DNA of 64,000 nucleotides from Methanomassiliicoccus sp. (lineage in GTDB: Archaea; Thermoplasmatota; Thermoplasmata; Methanomassiliicoccales; Methanomassiliicoccaceae). The position numbers and the translations under genes are program-made. A model generated the notes under the pieces. That model was given only the letters and a program-made list of their open reading frames with translations, did not search any database and was not told the DNA's origin. This document shows positions 9,283 through 50,385 of the stretch, piece by piece (the first letter of the stretch is position 1; each line of letters starts with the position of its first letter). The DNA is taken from positions 310,001 through 374,000 of the forward strand of contig JAWQJJ010000001.1 in the NCBI GenBank assembly GCA_033485155.1, read 5' to 3'.

Positions 9283-10059
9283 ATGCATTACGTCTACTTC
9301 ATCGGCACCGCCGGCAGCGGCAAGAGCTCGCTGGTACAGGCCTTCCAGGATTGGCTGGATAGCAACGGCATCGACAGCATCGTGGTCAACCTCGACCCCG
9401 GTGCGGACTTCATCCCCTATCAGGCGGACGTCGACATCCGGGACTGGGTACACCTGGATGAGATCATGCGGGACTACTCTCTCGGCCCCAATGGGGCGCA
9501 GATCGTGGCCTCCGACCTCATGGCCATCAACGCCAAGGAGTGGGTGCCGGTGGTCAAGAAGATGGAGACCGATTACTGTCTCATCGACATTCCAGGACAG
9601 ATGGAGCTCTTCACCTTCCGGCAGTCCTCCGGCGCTCTCATCGACGAGCTGGGCCGAGAGGATAGCTTCCTCGTCTTCCTCTCCGACCCAACCCTCGCCA
9701 AGACGTCCAACGGCTTCGTGTCCGACCTCATGCTTGCAGGGATCACCCAGTTCCGTTTCTCCCTTCCTCTCCTCAACGTCCTCTCCAAGTCCGACCTGCT
9801 CAAGGAAGAGGAGCTGGAGGAAGTGCTCGGATGGTCGCGCGACGCCTACTCCCTGTACAACGCCCTGACCGGCCCGGACATGAGCTCTCAGGCGGTGATA
9901 AGCATAGAGTACCTGAAGGCTATGGAGAGCGTGGGCATGTACAAGGAGCTGACCCCGGTCTCGGCCATGGAAGGCACCGGCCTGGAGGATATATACAATG
10001 CCGTCCAGCAGTACTTCGAGGGGGGCGAGGACATCGGATCGAGGCCCTCTTCAGAGTAG
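9283..10059 (+). CDS. GPN-loop GTPase
   Basis: A 258-residue archaeal homologue of eukaryotic GPN1-3 (XAB1) GTPases, which in eukaryotes help assemble RNA polymerase II. The P-loop GTAGSGKSS is at residues 8-16, the defining GPN motif is in LGPNGAQ (about 74-76), the switch region is DIPGQME, and NVLSKSD is the guanine-specificity motif. I chose the ATG at 9283 because the P-loop strand starts there; the frame is open from 9130 but that extension is not conserved in character. A TATA-like CCTTTATG lies about 42 bases upstream. The 3' end overlaps the convergent winged-helix gene by 9 bases. Confidence 0.92.
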   Translation: MHYVYFIGTAGSGKSSLVQAFQDWLDSNGIDSIVVNLDPGADFIPYQADVDIRDWVHLDEIMRDYSLGPNGAQIVASDLMAINAKEWVPVVKKMETDYCLIDIPGQMELFTFRQSSGALIDELGREDSFLVFLSDPTLAKTSNGFVSDLMLAGITQFRFSLPLLNVLSKSDLLKEEELEEVLGWSRDAYSLYNALTGPDMSSQAVISIEYLKAMESVGMYKELTPVSAMEGTGLEDIYNAVQQYFEGGEDIGSRPSSE

Positions 10060-10386
10060 GGTCCCGGTGTCGACGGTGTAGTCCTTCTGCCCGCAGCTCT
10101 CCAACTTGAAGGTGATCTTGAGCTTGCCGCGCTCCGTGAACAGGAATGCGTCGTGGAGCATGGACTGGAAGAGGGGCATCTCCCGTCCATCGATGGCGTA
10201 GGTGACGGCCACCCGCTTGACGAGCCCCTTCCTCTCTAGGACCTTGAGGCGGGAGAACAGCTTAGCTACGGGGATACCGGTGATACGCCAGATCTCCAGG
10301 GCCGTCCGGGGACGGTAAAGGGCGGCCATCATGATCTTGGTCGAACGCTCGTCCACAAAGATCCTCTGGGCCGTTCGGTAGTTCAT
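10051..10386 (-). CDS. Winged helix-turn-helix regulator, ArsR-like
   Basis: A 111-residue DNA-binding protein. Residues about 15-70 form a wHTH (IMMAALYRPRTALEIWRITGIP, then SRLKVLERKGLVKR), followed by a short beta-rich tail. A TATATAA block sits 29 bases upstream of the ATG, so the transcript is predicted to be leaderless. No ligand-binding cysteine pair typical of metal-sensing ArsR is evident. Targets are unknown. Confidence 0.75.
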   Translation of the reverse strand: MNYRTAQRIFVDERSTKIMMAALYRPRTALEIWRITGIPVAKLFSRLKVLERKGLVKRVAVTYAIDGREMPLFQSMLHDAFLFTERGKLKITFKLESCGQKDYTVDTGTLL

Positions 10387-10410
10387 TTGATCTTTAGACC
10401 CTCGGATGAT

Positions 10411-10419
10411 TATATAACA
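10411..10419 (-). promoter_or_regulatory. TATA box of the wHTH gene
   Basis: TATATAACA, centred about 29 bases upstream of the ATG at 10386 on the minus strand, in an AT-rich 110-bp spacer between this gene and the end of the PAN gene. Spacing implies a leaderless mRNA. Confidence 0.5.
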
Positions 10420-10502
10420 GGTTAGTCATGAGTCTCAAGGATTGATTATTGCATTATAGAATTGAAAATAAAAATAGGATGGGAAGATAGTTCGAAGGGG
10501 TT

Positions 10503-11711
10503 TCAGGCGAACATGACGCCGGACTCAACGATCTTCGTGGTCTCGTTGTCCAGCACCTTGATGATCGCCCTCTCGAAGTCGGACATGCTGACATGATCCC
10601 GGTTATCGCGGATGGCGAACATGCCTGCTTCGGTGCAGATGGCCTTTATATCCGCCCCGGTGGCCCCCTCGGCCTTCAGAGCGAGTTCGGTGAGGGTGAT
10701 GCCCTCGTCGATGGCCATGCGCTTGGTGTGGATCTTGAAGATCTCCAGCCTGCCCTCGTAGCCGGGCACCGGCACCTCGATGATACGGTCGAAGCGTCCC
10801 GGCCGCAGCAGCGCCTCGTCCAGGATGTCCGGACGGTTGGTGGCTCCGATGATCTTGACCTCGCCGATGGGATTGAATCCATCCAGCTCCGAGAGGAGCT
10901 GCATGAGGGTCCTCTGGACCTCCCGGTCCCCCGAGGTGGCGACCTCTAGACGCTTGGCGCCTATGGAGTCCAGCTCATCGATGAACACAATGCTGGGGGC
11001 CTTTTCCTTGGCCAGCTCGAACAGCTCGCGGACCAGCCGGGCGCCCTCCCCGATATACTTCTGGACTAGTTCCGATCCGACGAAGCGTATGAATGTGGCA
11101 TTGGTCTGGTGGGCGACAGCCTTGGCCAGCAGGGTCTTGCCCGTACCTGGCGGACCGACCAGCAGCACGCCCTTGGGCGGTTCGATGCCCACCTTCTTGT
11201 AGAGCTCTGGCCTCAGCAGGGGATCCTCCACCGCCTCGCGGACCTCCAGGATCTGCTCCTCCAGGCCCCCGATCTGGTCGTAGGCGATCTCCGGCTTGTC
11301 GATTATCTCCGCCCCCACCACAATGGGGTCCAGGGATGGCGGCAGAACGCCCATCACAGCCAGGGTCTGCTTGTTCAGAGCCACCCTCGCCCCCACCAGG
11401 AGATCTTCCATCGGAACGTACTCGGAGGTGGACACGATGAAATCAGGGCCTGTGGAGCTCTTTACGATGACTCGGCCGTCGGCAAGGACGTCCTTGATGG
11501 ATCCGATGATCAGGGGCGGGGACTTCAACCGCTCCATCTCCGCCCGCATCCTCTTTAGTTCCTTTTGAAGGCGGAAGAGCTCGCTCTCAACGTACCGCTT
11601 TTCCCCTTCGACCCTGCGTATCTCTTCCAAGAGCTCGCCGTTGCGTCTCTCAAGGACCTCGATCTTGTCCCGCATCTCGGCAACTAGCTCTTCCAGCTGG
11701 GGTTCCTTCAT
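10503..11711 (-). CDS. pan: Proteasome-activating nucleotidase PAN
   Basis: A 402-residue AAA+ ATPase that unfolds substrates and opens the 20S proteasome gate. It has an N-terminal coiled coil (about 1-65), an OB domain (about 68-135), Walker A GPPGTGKT at 186-193, Walker B IVFIDELD, and the sensor/arginine-finger tract [21 protein letters not shown]. The start is the ATG at 11711, preceded by GGTGG; the upstream frame lacks PAN character. The C-terminus ends MFA, so the gate-opening HbYX motif has Phe in place of Tyr. A TATA-like CATATAG lies about 41 bases upstream. No proteasome subunit gene is in this window. Confidence 0.95.
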
Positions 11712-30312: not shown

Positions 30313-31116
30313 TCACAGTGTCCCGCTGGCCAGGCACTTCAGGTTGTTAATGACCTTCTCGTCCAGGGCCGGCGGGTAGACCGATAAGAGAAGCACACCC
30401 CTCAGGGTGATAGCCAGATCGGACATCAGGGAGATGAACTTGAGCACGCTGACCTCTCGGTCGGCGCTCTGCATGATGAGGTACTCGACGCCTTCGACCA
30501 GGACCACCCTGCCCTCCTCCGCCCTCATGAAGTTCCGGGTCTCGGAGATCAGGCGAGGCATATCGGTGGGAGATATGACGGTGTACGGGCCGTACTGGGA
30601 GCTCTCGTGTTTCGTCAGCCAGTAGGCGGTCACGGTATCGTTGAGGCCTCCCTGGTAATTGCCCGGGAAGCTCCTCAGGATGCACAGCGCCTGGGTCCCA
30701 TCGGCGGTCAGCTCGTTGACCACGGTCAGGGCCTTGGTGGCGTACATGCTCTCGATGAGGTAAGTGTTGCCCCTCTCCACCTCGACCCGAGGGCCCCTCG
30801 CGGGGGCCTTCGACAGCAGGTCGATCCCCGTCTCCGCCCGGATCTCGGTCTTGACGTCCCGGACCGACTCATTGATGGACTGGCGCTTGCTCTTGGCCAT
30901 GACCTGGATCTCGCGGGGGCTGAAGCCTTTGGTGGTCAAGCCTATAAGCTCGTCCCAGGCTTTATTGAGGCCTTCCTCGAAGCCCTTGACGTAACCTCGG
31001 TAAAATTCCTCCCGCGTCGACAATGCATCCCGTCCGACGATAGCGGCTTCGCGGATAAATATCTTATTCCGACGATATCCTTCGGTGAAGAGGTCGCCGG
31101 CCAGGGAGCGAGCCAT
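30313..31116 (-). CDS. DUF835 protein
   Basis: About 267 residues from the ATG at 31116. The C-terminal domain (about 110-260) matches DUF835: TYLIESMYATKALTV at its start, VLVEGVEYLIMQSADREV, then VLKFISLMSDLAITLRGVLLLSVYPPALDE. The N-terminal part is helical and Arg/Lys-rich. DUF835 proteins are common in Thermoplasmatota and Thermococci, often as sensor or accessory modules, with no defined function. The frame is open to 31464, but that part overlaps the divergently read gene and has no domain character. Confidence 0.75.
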   Translation of the reverse strand: MARSLAGDLFTEGYRRNKIFIREAAIVGRDALSTREEFYRGYVKGFEEGLNKAWDELIGLTTKGFSPREIQVMAKSKRQSINESVRDVKTEIRAETGIDLLSKAPARGPRVEVERGNTYLIESMYATKALTVVNELTADGTQALCILRSFPGNYQGGLNDTVTAYWLTKHESSQYGPYTVISPTDMPRLISETRNFMRAEEGRVVLVEGVEYLIMQSADREVSVLKFISLMSDLAITLRGVLLLSVYPPALDEKVINNLKCLASGTL

Positions 31117-31186
31117 CTTGAGGACCGGAACGCGCACGCGGCGACGTCCCCAAGCCTTAAGAACGCCGGCGGCGTAGGGGAGGACC

Positions 31187-32713
31187 ATGGGACGCCGCGC
31201 TAGGTTCCGGGGGGCCAAGGCCACCCCGAAGACGCTGGAGAAAGACCTCCTGGAGAAGTCCCGGCTGCTCGCCGGGAAGCCCCAGCTGCTCATGCCCCAA
31301 TGCACCAAGGAGTGCCGGCGGTGCGATCTCCGGAAAGCGGTGGCCAAGATGGAGAAGGTGTCCCAGAATCGGTCCGATCCCCGGAAGCTGGACCACGCCA
31401 TGAACTGGGGCGACCAGCTGGTACGGGCATACGCCGCGACCATCTCATTGCACGAGGCCGGCAAGGTGCCCTACCTCGCTGCCACCAAGACCCCCCTGGG
31501 CGAGGTGTCGTACGCCGTGCGGGGAAAGGTGGAGCGGGACAAGCTCATCGGAGTGCAGCACTACGACCACCCAGAACTGCGCCTCCTGGCGCTGTGGGAC
31601 ACCGCCCGCAAGCGAGGGCTGCACATTTACTCGACGGAGAGGTGTGCCATCTGCTCCCCCGACGGACCGAGTCCCCCGGAGGAGTATGTGGACGAGGCCA
31701 TCTCCCTCCTGCCCTACGACCTGGACGACAACGGCGACTGCCCGCACGTGAAGGAGGGGCGGGGGATCAGGGTCCGGTGGAAGGGCGCCGGGACGGAGAT
31801 CCACGTGTGCCCCTCCTGCTCCGGCGATGCCAACACCGTGCACCTTCTCGCCGGCCGCATCGCCGCGGAGGATCCCACCGACGACTTCGAGGTGGAGATC
31901 ATCAGCGACCTCCGCTGCGACAGCGAGTGCCCGGGATGCCGGGTGAAGGAGGCATACCGTCTCCCCAAGGACCTGGTGGGCCGATACCTGAAGGCTGAGC
32001 TGAACGATGCTGGACTCCTCGACGAGCACTTCCGTTCCCGGGCCGCCGCGGTACGGGAGCGGCAGGACGAGGTGTACATGATCGGCGGGACGTGCTACGG
32101 GCGGGACAAGGAGCGGTTCCTCGCAGCCCTGAGGGGATCGGAGGTGGAGAAGAAAGCGATATCCACGCTCCTCTCCTCGGGGAAGATGTGCGTGCTGTCG
32201 CGGACCGACCAGGCCGCCAATCTAATCTCCGATCTGTGGCCGGAGCACCGCGACGCCCTGCTCGCCGCGGTAGCCTCGCCGGACATCGTGAAGCGGGTGG
32301 TGGCGGAGCGCTCGGAACTGACCCCGTCCCAGATGGTGATCGAGGCGGGACGCATGGAGGCCTATCGAGGGATCGAGAGCGCCCTGCCCGCCTTCAGGAA
32401 GCTGGGGCCGGTGGGCAGCTATGCCGACGGCATCGCGAGGACGGCCAAGACCGAAGGGAAGGAGGCGGCGATGAGGCAGATTGAGAAGGGCAAGGGCGGC
32501 GACCACCGGCTGCGTTCGGTATCGTTTGCCTTCATCACCGCCCTGGGAGAGGGCCAGGCCAAGGCATGGCAGTTCACCCGGGAGGAGATGGACTTCGGCA
32601 CCTACCTCGCCCCCTTCGCCCAGCGCCTGCTGGAGAGCCAGGGGGACGGCTACGCCGAAGGCCTGAAACTCCTGCTGGAGGCGTCGGGTTCCATCGAGAA
32701 TATCGAGATCTAG
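31187..32713 (+). CDS. Cysteine-rich protein of unknown function
   Basis: A 508-residue protein I do not recognise. Cysteine clusters lie at 39/43/46 (CTKECRRC), 153/156 (CAIC), 185, 208/211 (CPSC) and 244/248/251 (CDSECPGC), followed by a C-terminal half of about 240 helical residues without cysteine clusters. CxxxCxxC occurs twice, the spacing of radical SAM enzymes, but no other radical SAM signature is evident, and metal ribbons are an alternative. It is head-to-head with the DUF835 gene with only 70 bases between start codons, so they may share control. The 3' end overlaps the Taw2-like gene by 4 bases. Confidence 0.6.
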   Translation: MGRRARFRGAKATPKTLEKDLLEKSRLLAGKPQLLMPQCTKECRRCDLRKAVAKMEKVSQNRSDPRKLDHAMNWGDQLVRAYAATISLHEAGKVPYLAATKTPLGEVSYAVRGKVERDKLIGVQHYDHPELRLLALWDTARKRGLHIYSTERCAICSPDGPSPPEEYVDEAISLLPYDLDDNGDCPHVKEGRGIRVRWKGAGTEIHVCPSCSGDANTVHLLAGRIAAEDPTDDFEVEIISDLRCDSECPGCRVKEAYRLPKDLVGRYLKAELNDAGLLDEHFRSRAAAVRERQDEVYMIGGTCYGRDKERFLAALRGSEVEKKAISTLLSSGKMCVLSRTDQAANLISDLWPEHRDALLAAVASPDIVKRVVAERSELTPSQMVIEAGRMEAYRGIESALPAFRKLGPVGSYADGIARTAKTEGKEAAMRQIEKGKGGDHRLRSVSFAFITALGEGQAKAWQFTREEMDFGTYLAPFAQRLLESQGDGYAEGLKLLLEASGSIENIEI

Positions 32714-47423: not shown

Positions 47424-48137
47424 TTGGACCAAACCCCGCGACTGAGAACCTACGTGGATGGCTTCGACCGAGCACTGGAGGGAGGGATCCCCCAGGGACA
47501 CATTATTCTGATGGCCGGCACCCCGGGCACCATGAAGTCCTCGTTGACCTACTATACTCTTTTCAATCAAGCGAAGGAGAACAACACCACCTGCGTGTAC
47601 GTCACTCTGGAGCAGTCCCGCACCTCCCTGCTGAAGCAGATGGAGAAGATGGGGATGCGCACTGAAGACGTGAAACAGAACATGCACATTCTGGACCTGG
47701 GGATCATACGCAAGAACCTCAAGAACACCACCGGTGCGGAGTCCTGGATGCAGGTGTTCAAGGGCTATCTGACATCGCTCAAGACTGATTTGAACTTCAG
47801 CGTGCTAGCGATAGATTCACTGGGAGTATTGGAGACCATATCTTCTATGACCAACCGGCGCACCGACCTCTTCTACCTGTTCGAGTGGCTGCGCGATCTC
47901 AACGCCACGACCATTCTCATTTCCGAGGCTTCCCCCGACCGGCTGTTCGACGGCTCCTATGATGAGGGATACCTCGCCGACGGGATAATCACGCTCAAGA
48001 TGCAGGTCATTCGAGAGGTCGAGACCCAGAGGAGGATCCGCTGCGTCAAGATGAGGGAGACCAACCACGACCCGTCGTACTTCTCCCTGATCTTCTCCGG
48101 CGGGAAGTTCCAGGTGACCAAGGCCATCAGCGAATGA
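47424..48137 (+). CDS. KaiC/RadA-superfamily ATPase 1
   Basis: A 237-residue single-domain KaiC-like ATPase. It begins LRTYVDGFDRALEGGIPQG, has a variant Walker A GTPGTMKS (residues 32-39) in which the Gly before the lysine is Met, a LEQS tract where KaiC has an EE pair, and Walker B VLAIDS. The start is TTG, preceded by GGAGGA. It is followed within 10 bases by a longer paralogue. KaiC-like proteins in archaea often act in signalling or archaellum control; the role here is not known. Confidence 0.9.
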   Translation: MDQTPRLRTYVDGFDRALEGGIPQGHIILMAGTPGTMKSSLTYYTLFNQAKENNTTCVYVTLEQSRTSLLKQMEKMGMRTEDVKQNMHILDLGIIRKNLKNTTGAESWMQVFKGYLTSLKTDLNFSVLAIDSLGVLETISSMTNRRTDLFYLFEWLRDLNATTILISEASPDRLFDGSYDEGYLADGIITLKMQVIREVETQRRIRCVKMRETNHDPSYFSLIFSGGKFQVTKAISE

Positions 48138-48147
48138 GGAGATGGTA

Positions 48148-49602
48148 ATGCCACGGATATTGGAATGTGCGAGGTGCGGCGCGGGCATCGGTCATAACGA
48201 CACCCAGTGCTGGCGCTGCGGCGAGCCCGTGAAGGGGGAGAGCAGCGGAGGCGCCAGGCTTAACGCCCTCTCCATGGGCAAGACGCCGGGCCCCGGTATA
48301 CGGGACCTTCGCACGTCCAAGAATAAGGAGATCCCCAAGGTCGGGCCGGCGGTCCGCCCCATCCTCGAGACCTACAATGGACGGGAGAAGGAGCTGAAGG
48401 ACAGGGAGAAGGAGGTCAAGGAGACCATGGCGGCCCTGGAGGCAGAATCCAGGGAGCTGGAATCTACCGCCCGGGAGATGGAGAAGGAGCGGATGGCCCT
48501 CAAGGAGGCCAGGGAGCGGATCGCCCAGAGGGAGCAGGAGCTCGACGCCAAGGCTATCCTCCTGGAGGACATACTGACCGTCACCCAGGACATCAAGAAC
48601 GACTCTCCCGCGATCATATCTTCCGACGACAAGGAGGTGCTGCAGACAGCCCAGACTGAGCTCTGCACGGTGCTGGGGGAGGAGCGGGAGCGCATCCGCC
48701 GGGAGGTCGAGCGGGAGATGGCCGACCAGCTCACCCGCATCCAGCAGCTGGAGGCCGAGCTCAAGGTGGCAAGATCGCATCTCAACCGGGAAATGGATCC
48801 CGTGGTCCCCGTCGATATATCCCAGGTGCTATCTGATATCCGGTCAGAGATGAGCTCCCAGATAGGGGCGGGGATGCCAGAGGGGATCGAGGACACCCTG
48901 GTCCGCACCTACGTGGAGAAGCTCGACCAGATCCTGGCAGGCGGTGTGCCCCAGGGCAGCGTGGTGCTGATCAACGGGCCCCCCGGCAGCATGAAGACTT
49001 CGCTGGCCTTCAATATCCTGCACAACGCCGCGACCAATGGGCCGATGAAGGGCATGTTCCTCTCCCTAGAGCAGGACAGTGCCTCCCTCCTAAGGCAGAT
49101 GGCCCGCCTGGACATGAAGCGGGAGGAGTCGCTGGAAAACCTGATGGTGGTGGACCTCGTCGACCTCCGGCGCAGCATGGAGGGGCAGATCGGCGACTGG
49201 CGCAATCTCATCGACCAGTACATTGAGGACGCGGTGACCGCCCATGGGATAAGGTTGCTGGTCCTCGATTCCCTAGAGTCGTTCGCCGCCCTATCGGAGA
49301 ACGAGCTGGCCCGGTCGGACATCCAGGACCTCTTCGACCACTTCCGCGCGCTCGGATTGACCACCTTCGTTATCTCGGAGACTCCCATGAGCAAGCTGGA
49401 GCGTGATGGCCGCATGGAGCTTTATGTCGCCGACGGCGCTCTGGAACTGTCCCTCAAGGAGACCCCCGACAGCCATGTTCAGAGGTGGTTGCGGTGCGTG
49501 AAGATGAGAGGCACCAACATGGATCCCCGGTACTACAACATGATGCACGCTGGAGGGGCGTTCATCCTCAGTGTTCCGATGAACAGGTACTGCTCAGAGT
49601 GA
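48148..49602 (+). CDS. Zinc-ribbon, coiled-coil KaiC-like ATPase 2
   Basis: A 484-residue protein in three parts: a zinc ribbon CARCGAG...CWRCGEP (about 6-25), a long coiled coil of Glu/Lys/Arg-rich heptads (about 70-220), and a C-terminal KaiC domain with GPPGSMKTS Walker A (same Met substitution), LEQD and VLDSLESF. The KaiC part starts LVRTYVEKLDQILAGGVPQG like its neighbours. I use the ATG at 48148, with GAGGAG 9 bases upstream, in preference to the ATG two codons before it. It sits between two short paralogues. Confidence 0.88.
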   Translation: MPRILECARCGAGIGHNDTQCWRCGEPVKGESSGGARLNALSMGKTPGPGIRDLRTSKNKEIPKVGPAVRPILETYNGREKELKDREKEVKETMAALEAESRELESTAREMEKERMALKEARERIAQREQELDAKAILLEDILTVTQDIKNDSPAIISSDDKEVLQTAQTELCTVLGEERERIRREVEREMADQLTRIQQLEAELKVARSHLNREMDPVVPVDISQVLSDIRSEMSSQIGAGMPEGIEDTLVRTYVEKLDQILAGGVPQGSVVLINGPPGSMKTSLAFNILHNAATNGPMKGMFLSLEQDSASLLRQMARLDMKREESLENLMVVDLVDLRRSMEGQIGDWRNLIDQYIEDAVTAHGIRLLVLDSLESFAALSENELARSDIQDLFDHFRALGLTTFVISETPMSKLERDGRMELYVADGALELSLKETPDSHVQRWLRCVKMRGTNMDPRYYNMMHAGGAFILSVPMNRYCSE

Positions 49603-49671
49603 GGGCAACGAGCATTTACCAACGAGACATTAAATATATTAACCATAATTTAGCCAGCGGAGGCTAAAACC

Positions 49672-50385
49672 TTGCAGATCGAGCGCTTGAGGACTTATAT
49701 CCAGAATTTCGACGAGAATCTTCAGGGAGGGATCCCCAAGAATCAGGTGGTCCTCCTCACTGGCACCCCGGGTACCATGAAGTCCTCGGTCGCCTACAGC
49801 ATCCTCTACTACAACGCTCTGGAGAAGGGCATCAAGTCGGTGTACATGACCCTGGAGCAATCCCGGGAGAACCTGTTGCAGCAGATGATATCCCTGGGCA
49901 TGGATGACCCGCGCGCCGATGAGTACATCCAGATCCTCGATCTCGGCCTCATACGTAAGAACCTCACCCAGCTCAGCGCCAAGGGCACCTGGCTGCAGGT
50001 GTTCAAGATGTATGCGGACAACCTCAAGCAGAGCTTCAATTACGACATCCTTGTCGTCGACTCCCTGGATGTCCTGGAGATGGCCGCCCAGATGGAGGAT
50101 AGCCGCCGGTCCGAGCTGTTCTACCTGTTCGAGTGGCTGAGGAACCTCAACGTGACATCCTTCCTCATATCCGAGACCACCCCGGACAACATGTTCGAGA
50201 ACCGGTTCGATGAGGGGTACCTCGCCGACGGCGTAATATCCCTGAAGCTGCAGGAGATCGGCGAGACCGACATCCAGAGGCGTATCCGATGCATCAAGCT
50301 GAGGAGCACCAACCATAAAACCGGCTACTTCTCGCTCCTCTTTGCTGAGGGCAAGTTCCGGGCCACCCAGGTCATCACTGAGTGA
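49672..50385 (+). CDS. KaiC/RadA-superfamily ATPase 3
   Basis: A 237-residue close paralogue of the gene at 47424, with LRTYIQNFDENLQGGIPK, Walker A GTPGTMKS (31-38), LEQS, and VVDSLDV. It too starts with TTG after GGAGG. A TATA-like TAAATATATTAACC (49631-49644) gives it its own promoter. Length equality and shared motifs point to duplication of the first gene rather than separate origin. Confidence 0.9.
   Translation: MQIERLRTYIQNFDENLQGGIPKNQVVLLTGTPGTMKSSVAYSILYYNALEKGIKSVYMTLEQSRENLLQQMISLGMDDPRADEYIQILDLGLIRKNLTQLSAKGTWLQVFKMYADNLKQSFNYDILVVDSLDVLEMAAQMEDSRRSELFYLFEWLRNLNVTSFLISETTPDNMFENRFDEGYLADGVISLKLQEIGETDIQRRIRCIKLRSTNHKTGYFSLLFAEGKFRATQVITE

What the first reader, a model, noticed from the sequence alone, without database searches (positions are those of the whole stretch)
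47424..50385. Three tandem KaiC-like ATPases all share a Gly-to-Met change in Walker A
All three P-loops read GxPGxMK[ST] (GTPGTMKS, GPPGSMKT, GTPGTMKS) instead of GxxxxGK[ST], and all have LEQ where KaiC has an EE pair. The middle protein adds a zinc ribbon and a coiled coil of about 150 residues. The two outer ones are equal in length and both start at TTG. A shared, conserved deviation suggests a distinct functional class with altered nucleotide handling, built as a module by duplication. Met in the loop is seen directly; the effect on ATP use is inference.
Basis: partly seen in the sequence, partly recalled or inferred. Interest (0 to 1): 0.75.

Follow-up and report, generated by a model that had tools for sequence, protein, structure and literature searches.

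The report
Met-loop KaiC ATPase trio in archaea
Three neighbouring KaiC-like energy-using proteins in a methane-producing archaeon share a bulky methionine where almost every related ATPase has a glycine in its ATP-gripping loop; they belong to one large, apparently unnamed branch spread across a whole archaeal phylum, in which the rest of the ATP site is kept intact, so the oddity looks functional rather than a defect.

Summary
Proteins A (47424-48137), B (48142-49602) and C (49672-50385) are single-domain KaiC-family ATPases with Walker A loops GTPGTMKS, GPPGSMKT and GTPGTMKS and LEQ at the catalytic Glu. B adds a four-Cys zinc ribbon and a long coiled coil. The A-B-C order is conserved in several families of the order Methanomassiliicoccales. 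The Met is not sporadic. In a tree made without that column, all bulky-residue proteins (57 Met, 13 Leu, 1 Ile, 1 Tyr) split from all Gly proteins (44) on one branch (SH-aLRT 98). In 113 diverse members the Walker A Lys and Ser/Thr, the distal Lys/Arg pair and, essentially, the Walker B Asp never vary, so simple pseudo-ATPases are unlikely. LEQ is a subclade trait: a sister branch, with a copy in this genome, keeps EE. TTG starts and equal lengths are incidental. Relatives sit beside coiled-coil, zinc-ribbon or TPR proteins, Ras-like GTPases and membrane DUF835 proteins, which points to signalling. Best reading: a clade of ATP-binding signalling ATPases with a modified P-loop; A, B and C probably co-assemble. 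ATP kinetics and the complex are inferred. New variant of a known kind; occurrence outside the phylum was not systematically tested.

The parts
47424..48137 (+). Protein A: single-domain KaiC-like ATPase, 237 aa, TTG start with GGAGG upstream
   Evidence: PF06745 1.2e-40
47517..47540 (+). Walker A of A, GTPGTMKS (Met codon 47532-47534)
47610..47615 (+). Catalytic Glu and following Gln of A (LEQ)
   Evidence: aligned to the KaiC Glu pair
48142..49602 (+). Protein B: zinc ribbon - coiled coil - KaiC-like ATPase, 486 aa, starting 4 nt after the A stop codon
48160..48231 (+). Zinc ribbon of B; Cys 9, 12, 23, 26 invariant in 20 orthologues
48355..48783 (+). Long helical, coiled-coil linker of B (residues 72-214)
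   Evidence: helices 72-154 and 161-214
48901..49575 (+). KaiC-like ATPase domain of B
   Evidence: PF06745 3e-36, residues 254-467
48976..48999 (+). Walker A of B, GPPGSMKT (Met codon 48991-48993)
49630..49641 (+). AT-rich TATA-like stretch between B and C; possible promoter of C
   Evidence: AT-rich stretches also precede C in several orthologous loci; function inferred
49672..50385 (+). Protein C: single-domain KaiC-like ATPase, 237 aa, TTG start
   Evidence: model pLDDT 92 with KaiC fold
49762..49785 (+). Walker A of C, GTPGTMKS (Met codon 49777-49779)

Best explanation
A, B and C belong to one Thermoplasmatota clade of KaiC-like (RecA-fold) ATPases in which the Walker A glycine just before the catalytic lysine was replaced once by a bulky residue (Met, sometimes Leu, rarely Ile or Tyr) and kept under purifying selection. 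They still bind ATP at a subunit interface and probably hydrolyse it, but the crowded P-loop makes binding, exchange or turnover slow or dependent on assembly and partners, so they act as nucleotide-gated switches rather than fast motors. In this genome A and B are translated as a unit, C lies just downstream, and the three probably form mixed rings; B's coiled coil and zinc ribbon project from the ring and couple its nucleotide state to a partner in a signalling pathway. Shown: sequences, clade, single origin, conservation of the rest of the active site, synteny, partner genes in relatives. Inferred: ATP kinetics, mixed rings, signalling role.
For: Single-branch Gly versus bulky split, SH-aLRT 98, with the trait columns blanked (113 bulky vs 18 Gly; 72 vs 44). 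In 113 members under about 72% identity: Walker A Lys 113/113, Ser/Thr 113/113, Walker B Asp 112 plus one unread residue, catalytic Glu 107 plus 4 Asp, Lys208 and Arg210 113/113; the last two align with the KaiC K-x-R pair that acts across the subunit interface (established KaiC knowledge). Only L, I and one Y replace M; V, T, K and R, also one base from ATG, were not seen. KaiC fold. A-B spacing from -8 to +16 nt in 14 loci. Partners: ZnR-coiled-coil next to the sister type in 16 of 16 loci, Ras-like GTPases within 45 nt (or overlapping) in 9 genomes of families f16, f26 and f21, TM-DUF835 proteins inside arrays of four Met-KaiCs. The B linker is coiled coil, TPR or acidic in different lineages.
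Against: No biochemistry exists for any member I could find. The same position mutated even to Ala makes Rho-family GTPases essentially nucleotide-free (RhoG G15A, RhoA G17A; PMC4357237). No direct evidence that A, B and C meet. Around the window itself the conserved neighbours are a radical-SAM gene and Hdr-like genes, not signalling genes. A few B-type proteins have lost the catalytic Glu (TMGQ in L038, LND in L263).
Confidence: 0.55

Rival explanations
1. Pseudo-ATPases: the bulky residue abolishes nucleotide binding and the proteins are structural scaffolds or adaptors.
For: Gly-to-Ala at this position empties Rho GTPases (PMC4357237). Some B-type proteins have lost the catalytic Glu, and one genome (G009, L074) keeps C with a B that has lost its ATPase domain.
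Against: Lys, Ser/Thr, Walker B Asp and the distal Lys/Arg are essentially invariant across the phylum, which neutral decay would not allow. C was not seen degenerate in the loci read.
Confidence: 0.2
2. Ordinary KaiC-like ATPases: Met at this position is tolerated without consequence and the proteins have normal turnover.
For: All other catalytic residues are kept and the fold is normal. Small residues (Ala, Ser) at the same position occur in eukaryotic MCM helicases, which are active (recalled, not tested here).
Against: The position is Gly in all 44 relatives outside the clade and never returns to Gly inside it; neutral tolerance would predict small residues and reversions.
Confidence: 0.2
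3. A, B and C are not one machine but neighbouring paralogues with separate jobs, kept together by tandem duplication and conserved gene order. (This rival concerns the complex only and can be true together with the others.)
For: C is 49-284 nt from B, often after an AT-rich stretch, and survives without A in G009. Gene order around the module is generally conserved in the order.
Against: The same pattern, short KaiC - ZnR-linker-KaiC - short KaiC, recurs in distant families with other linkers and other genes around it.
Confidence: 0.3

Closest known systems
KaiC (cyanobacterial clock ATPase), CI domain
   Same: Same Pfam family (PF06745), same fold (Foldseek 4tl7, E about 1e-19, TM 0.82), same Lys, Asp, Glu and distal Lys/Arg positions
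   Different: Single domain instead of CI-CII; bulky residue in Walker A; Gln for the second Glu; no KaiA or KaiB genes seen in the neighbourhoods read; far below the circ_KaiC cutoff (54.5 of 546 bits)
Archaeal KaiC-like proteins PH0186, PH0284, SSO2452 (solved, function unclear)
   Same: Single RecA/KaiC domain of about 240 aa; closest solved archaeal folds and sequences
   Different: 25-27% identity in the structural alignments for PH0186 and PH0284; none of the solved relatives whose alignments were read (three KaiC sequences) has Met in the loop
ArlH/FlaH, archaellum switch ATPase
   Same: KaiC-like single domain; proposed as a molecular switch of the archaellum motor (PMC12448462)
   Different: 49.2 bits against a cutoff of 215; no archaellum genes next to the module in the neighbourhoods read
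KaiC-like 'signal transduction hubs' of archaea (Makarova, Galperin, Koonin 2017; paper not held, recalled; cited in PMC5847659)
   Same: Expanded archaeal KaiC-like families linked to signalling domains
   Different: I could not check whether that work noticed the Met/Leu P-loop clade

Membership tests
KaiC ATPase family (PF06745) | Match over the Pfam cutoff of 26.6 bits | tested here: met
   139.7, 125.4 and 124.7 bits
KaiC ATPase family (PF06745) | Canonical Walker A GxxxxGK[ST] | tested here: not met
   GxPGxMK[ST] in all three; 44 of 44 relatives outside the clade have Gly
KaiC ATPase family (PF06745) | Walker B Asp, catalytic Glu, interface Lys-x-Arg | tested here: met
Circadian clock KaiC (TIGR02655) | Two ATPase domains, score over 546 bits | tested here: not met
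   single domain; 54.5, 31.1 and 48.3 bits
ArlH/FlaH (NF052589) | Score over 215 bits | tested here: not met
   49.2, 45 and 52.8 bits
NCBIfam archaeal KaiC subfamilies (TIGR03877, 03880, 03881) | Score over the curated cutoff (about 248-307 bits) | tested here: not met
   best 103.8 bits, TIGR03880: no named subfamily
GvpD | PF07088 over 24 bits | tested here: not met
   13.2 bits for C, none listed for A and B
Inactivated KaiC-like domain (iKaiC) | Loss of the ATP-site residues | tested here: not met
   Lys and Ser/Thr 113/113, Asp 112 plus one unread
ATP-hydrolysing hexameric ring | Hexamer formation and ATPase activity | not testable with these tools
   monomer prediction only

The most novel reading that the evidence does not exclude
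A phylum-wide clade of working ATPases uses a second kind of Walker A loop, GxxGx[M/L]K[S/T], in which a bulky side chain replaces the glycine before the catalytic lysine. This would turn a RecA-type ATPase into a slow, partner-gated switch at the core of an archaeal signalling system with Ras-like GTPases, zinc-ribbon/coiled-coil adaptors and membrane DUF835 proteins.
Probability: 0.4. Interest if true: 0.75.

Novelty: new variant of a known kind. Interest (0 to 1): 0.58.

Why it matters
The glycine before the Walker A lysine is among the most conserved residues of P-loop NTPases, and even Gly-to-Ala there empties small GTPases. A large natural clade that replaced it once with Met or Leu while keeping the rest of the ATP site makes it directly testable how much of the motif is really needed. 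It also provides a sequence tag (GxxGx[ML]K[ST]) for picking out an expanded, uncharacterised, probably signalling family in Thermoplasmatota, including methanogens.

Tried and rejected
DUF835 as a degenerate relative of the Met-KaiC domain: profile comparison gave nothing. Viral origin: only two distant viral hits, both with GK loops. Plasmid relatives: bacterial and haloarchaeal KaiC at 22-28% identity; the four fetched have GK loops. Literature: no relevant paper in the held library contains the loop sequences searched; the main paper on archaeal KaiC hubs is not held. TTG starts as a shared trait: rejected. LEQ as part of the defining change: rejected. Haloarchaeal MCM as a precedent for a non-Gly residue: rejected, they read GDPGTGKS. 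A profile of 70 diverse members was too variable for a viral scan. Searching other phyla by genome handle was not possible.

Full report
Observation. The three open reading frames are real and as described. A (47424-48137) and C (49672-50385) are 237 aa each; B (48142-49602) is 486 aa. All three match the KaiC family PF06745 far above the cutoff and no named NCBI subfamily. The loops read GTPGTMKS, GPPGSMKT and GTPGTMKS, with Met codons at 47532, 48991 and 49777, and each has LEQ at the position where KaiC has a Glu pair. A starts after GGAGG; B begins 4 nt after the A stop codon; C follows 69 nt after B, behind an AT-rich stretch.

Host. The genome has 17 PF06745 matches; besides A, B and C one more has the Met loop (C1:113800-114525, GPPGSMKT, with LEET) and several have ordinary GK loops.

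Conservation of the module. A-B-C in the same order and orientation occurs in families f1, f3, f4, f5 and f6 of the order, with A-B spacing from -8 to +16 nt in the 14 loci measured. All 20 listed f2 genomes lack a match. In G009, A was not found, B keeps only its zinc ribbon and coiled coil, and C remains. TTG starts are not conserved.

Distribution and tree. A profile of the family matched 185 of 250 genomes of the class at 1e-10; by my count of that table about 136 reach 1e-60, a level that the ordinary GK relatives seen here do not reach. A GTDB-wide scan for conserved peptides that avoid the P-loop kept 79 loci (the best of 109 candidates), all with titles that fit Thermoplasmatota or are uninformative. 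The residue before the Walker A Lys is Met or Leu, once Ile and once Tyr, in every clade member examined. With that column and the second-Glu column blanked, all Gly rows fall on one side of a single branch, SH-aLRT 98, both in the first tree (113 bulky, 18 Gly) and after further closest Gly relatives were added (72 bulky, 44 Gly). Bacterial KaiC lies on the Gly side, so the bulky state is derived. Met and Leu interchange several times inside the clade. One of the two main branches of the clade mostly keeps LEE; since Gly relatives have EE, the bulky residue most simply came first and LEQ later.

Is the ATP site alive? Across 113 members thinned to about 72% identity, the Walker A Lys and Ser/Thr are invariant, the Walker B Asp is invariant except for one unread residue, the catalytic Glu is Glu or Asp in 111, and Lys208 and Arg210, aligned with the pair that in KaiC reaches across the subunit interface, are invariant. 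This argues for an active oligomeric ATPase. Against it, Gly-to-Ala at this very position makes Rho GTPases nearly nucleotide-free (PMC4357237). A few B-type proteins have lost the catalytic Glu, so B may be drifting towards a regulatory role in some lineages.

Structure. C is predicted with high confidence (pLDDT 92) and matches the KaiC CI domain and the archaeal KaiC-like proteins PH0186 and PH0284. B is predicted as zinc ribbon, two long helices (72-154, 161-214) and a KaiC domain; the four Cys are invariant in 20 orthologues. Model coordinates could not be inspected, so the direction of the Met side chain is unknown.

Surroundings in relatives. Outside the order the clade sits in several recurrent operons: (1) short KaiC, ZnR-linker-KaiC, short KaiC, membrane protein with DUF835, short KaiC, in some loci with a Ras-like GTPase nearby (L186, L181, L184, L258, L264); the linker is a TPR in L192, L184 and L264 and acidic in L186 and L181; (2) KaiC followed by one or two Ras-like GTPases within 45 nt in nine genomes; (3) KaiC with a divergent conserved protein and a giant subtilase surface protein ending in a zinc ribbon. 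In Methanomassiliicoccales the LEE sister ATPase is followed in 16 of 16 loci by a coiled-coil protein, ending in a zinc ribbon in the two read in full, like a B protein without its ATPase. The repeated combination suggests that zinc-ribbon/coiled-coil (or TPR) parts are the adaptors of these ATPases. Around the window itself the steady neighbours are a radical-SAM gene and Hdr-like genes, which give no direct clue.

Conclusion. It defines a distinct class, as suggested, but LEQ and the TTG starts are not part of it. Altered nucleotide handling remains an inference. Most likely these are ATP-binding, slowly cycling switch ATPases in signalling complexes. This is a new variant of a known kind.

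Noticed in passing
G000:C1:113800-114525 and the following ORF (L087:8795-9526 and 9555-10625): Sister Met-loop ATPase with an EE pair next to gyrA, followed by a 357-aa coiled-coil protein with a C-terminal zinc ribbon and a basic tail (PVSIRKIIRKK) shared with the L204 homologue.
   Followed up: partly
L279:509-1998 (G000:C10, about 43.4-44.9 kb): The single Ras-like GTPase gene of this genome lies 14 nt upstream of a DUF835 protein; a DUF835 match lies within about 1 kb of the single Ras-like GTPase in all eight genomes checked.
   Followed up: partly
window 30316-31470 (-): One of 9 DUF835 proteins of this genome; in other genomes DUF835 is fused to response-regulator receiver domains (L281-L286).
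   Followed up: no
L206, L208, L211, L212 (family f41) and others: Search matches in several genomes report one TGA inside the matched stretch of the sister-type ATPase; possibly only upstream of the true start.
   Followed up: no
L172:2529-7643 and homologues: Giant subtilase surface proteins of about 1700 aa with a C-terminal zinc ribbon lie directly beside a Met-loop KaiC in many Thermoplasmatota genomes.
   Followed up: partly
L287 (G185:C7:75094-75774): A clade member with Tyr at the P-loop position (GPPGSYKS), the largest residue seen there.
   Followed up: no
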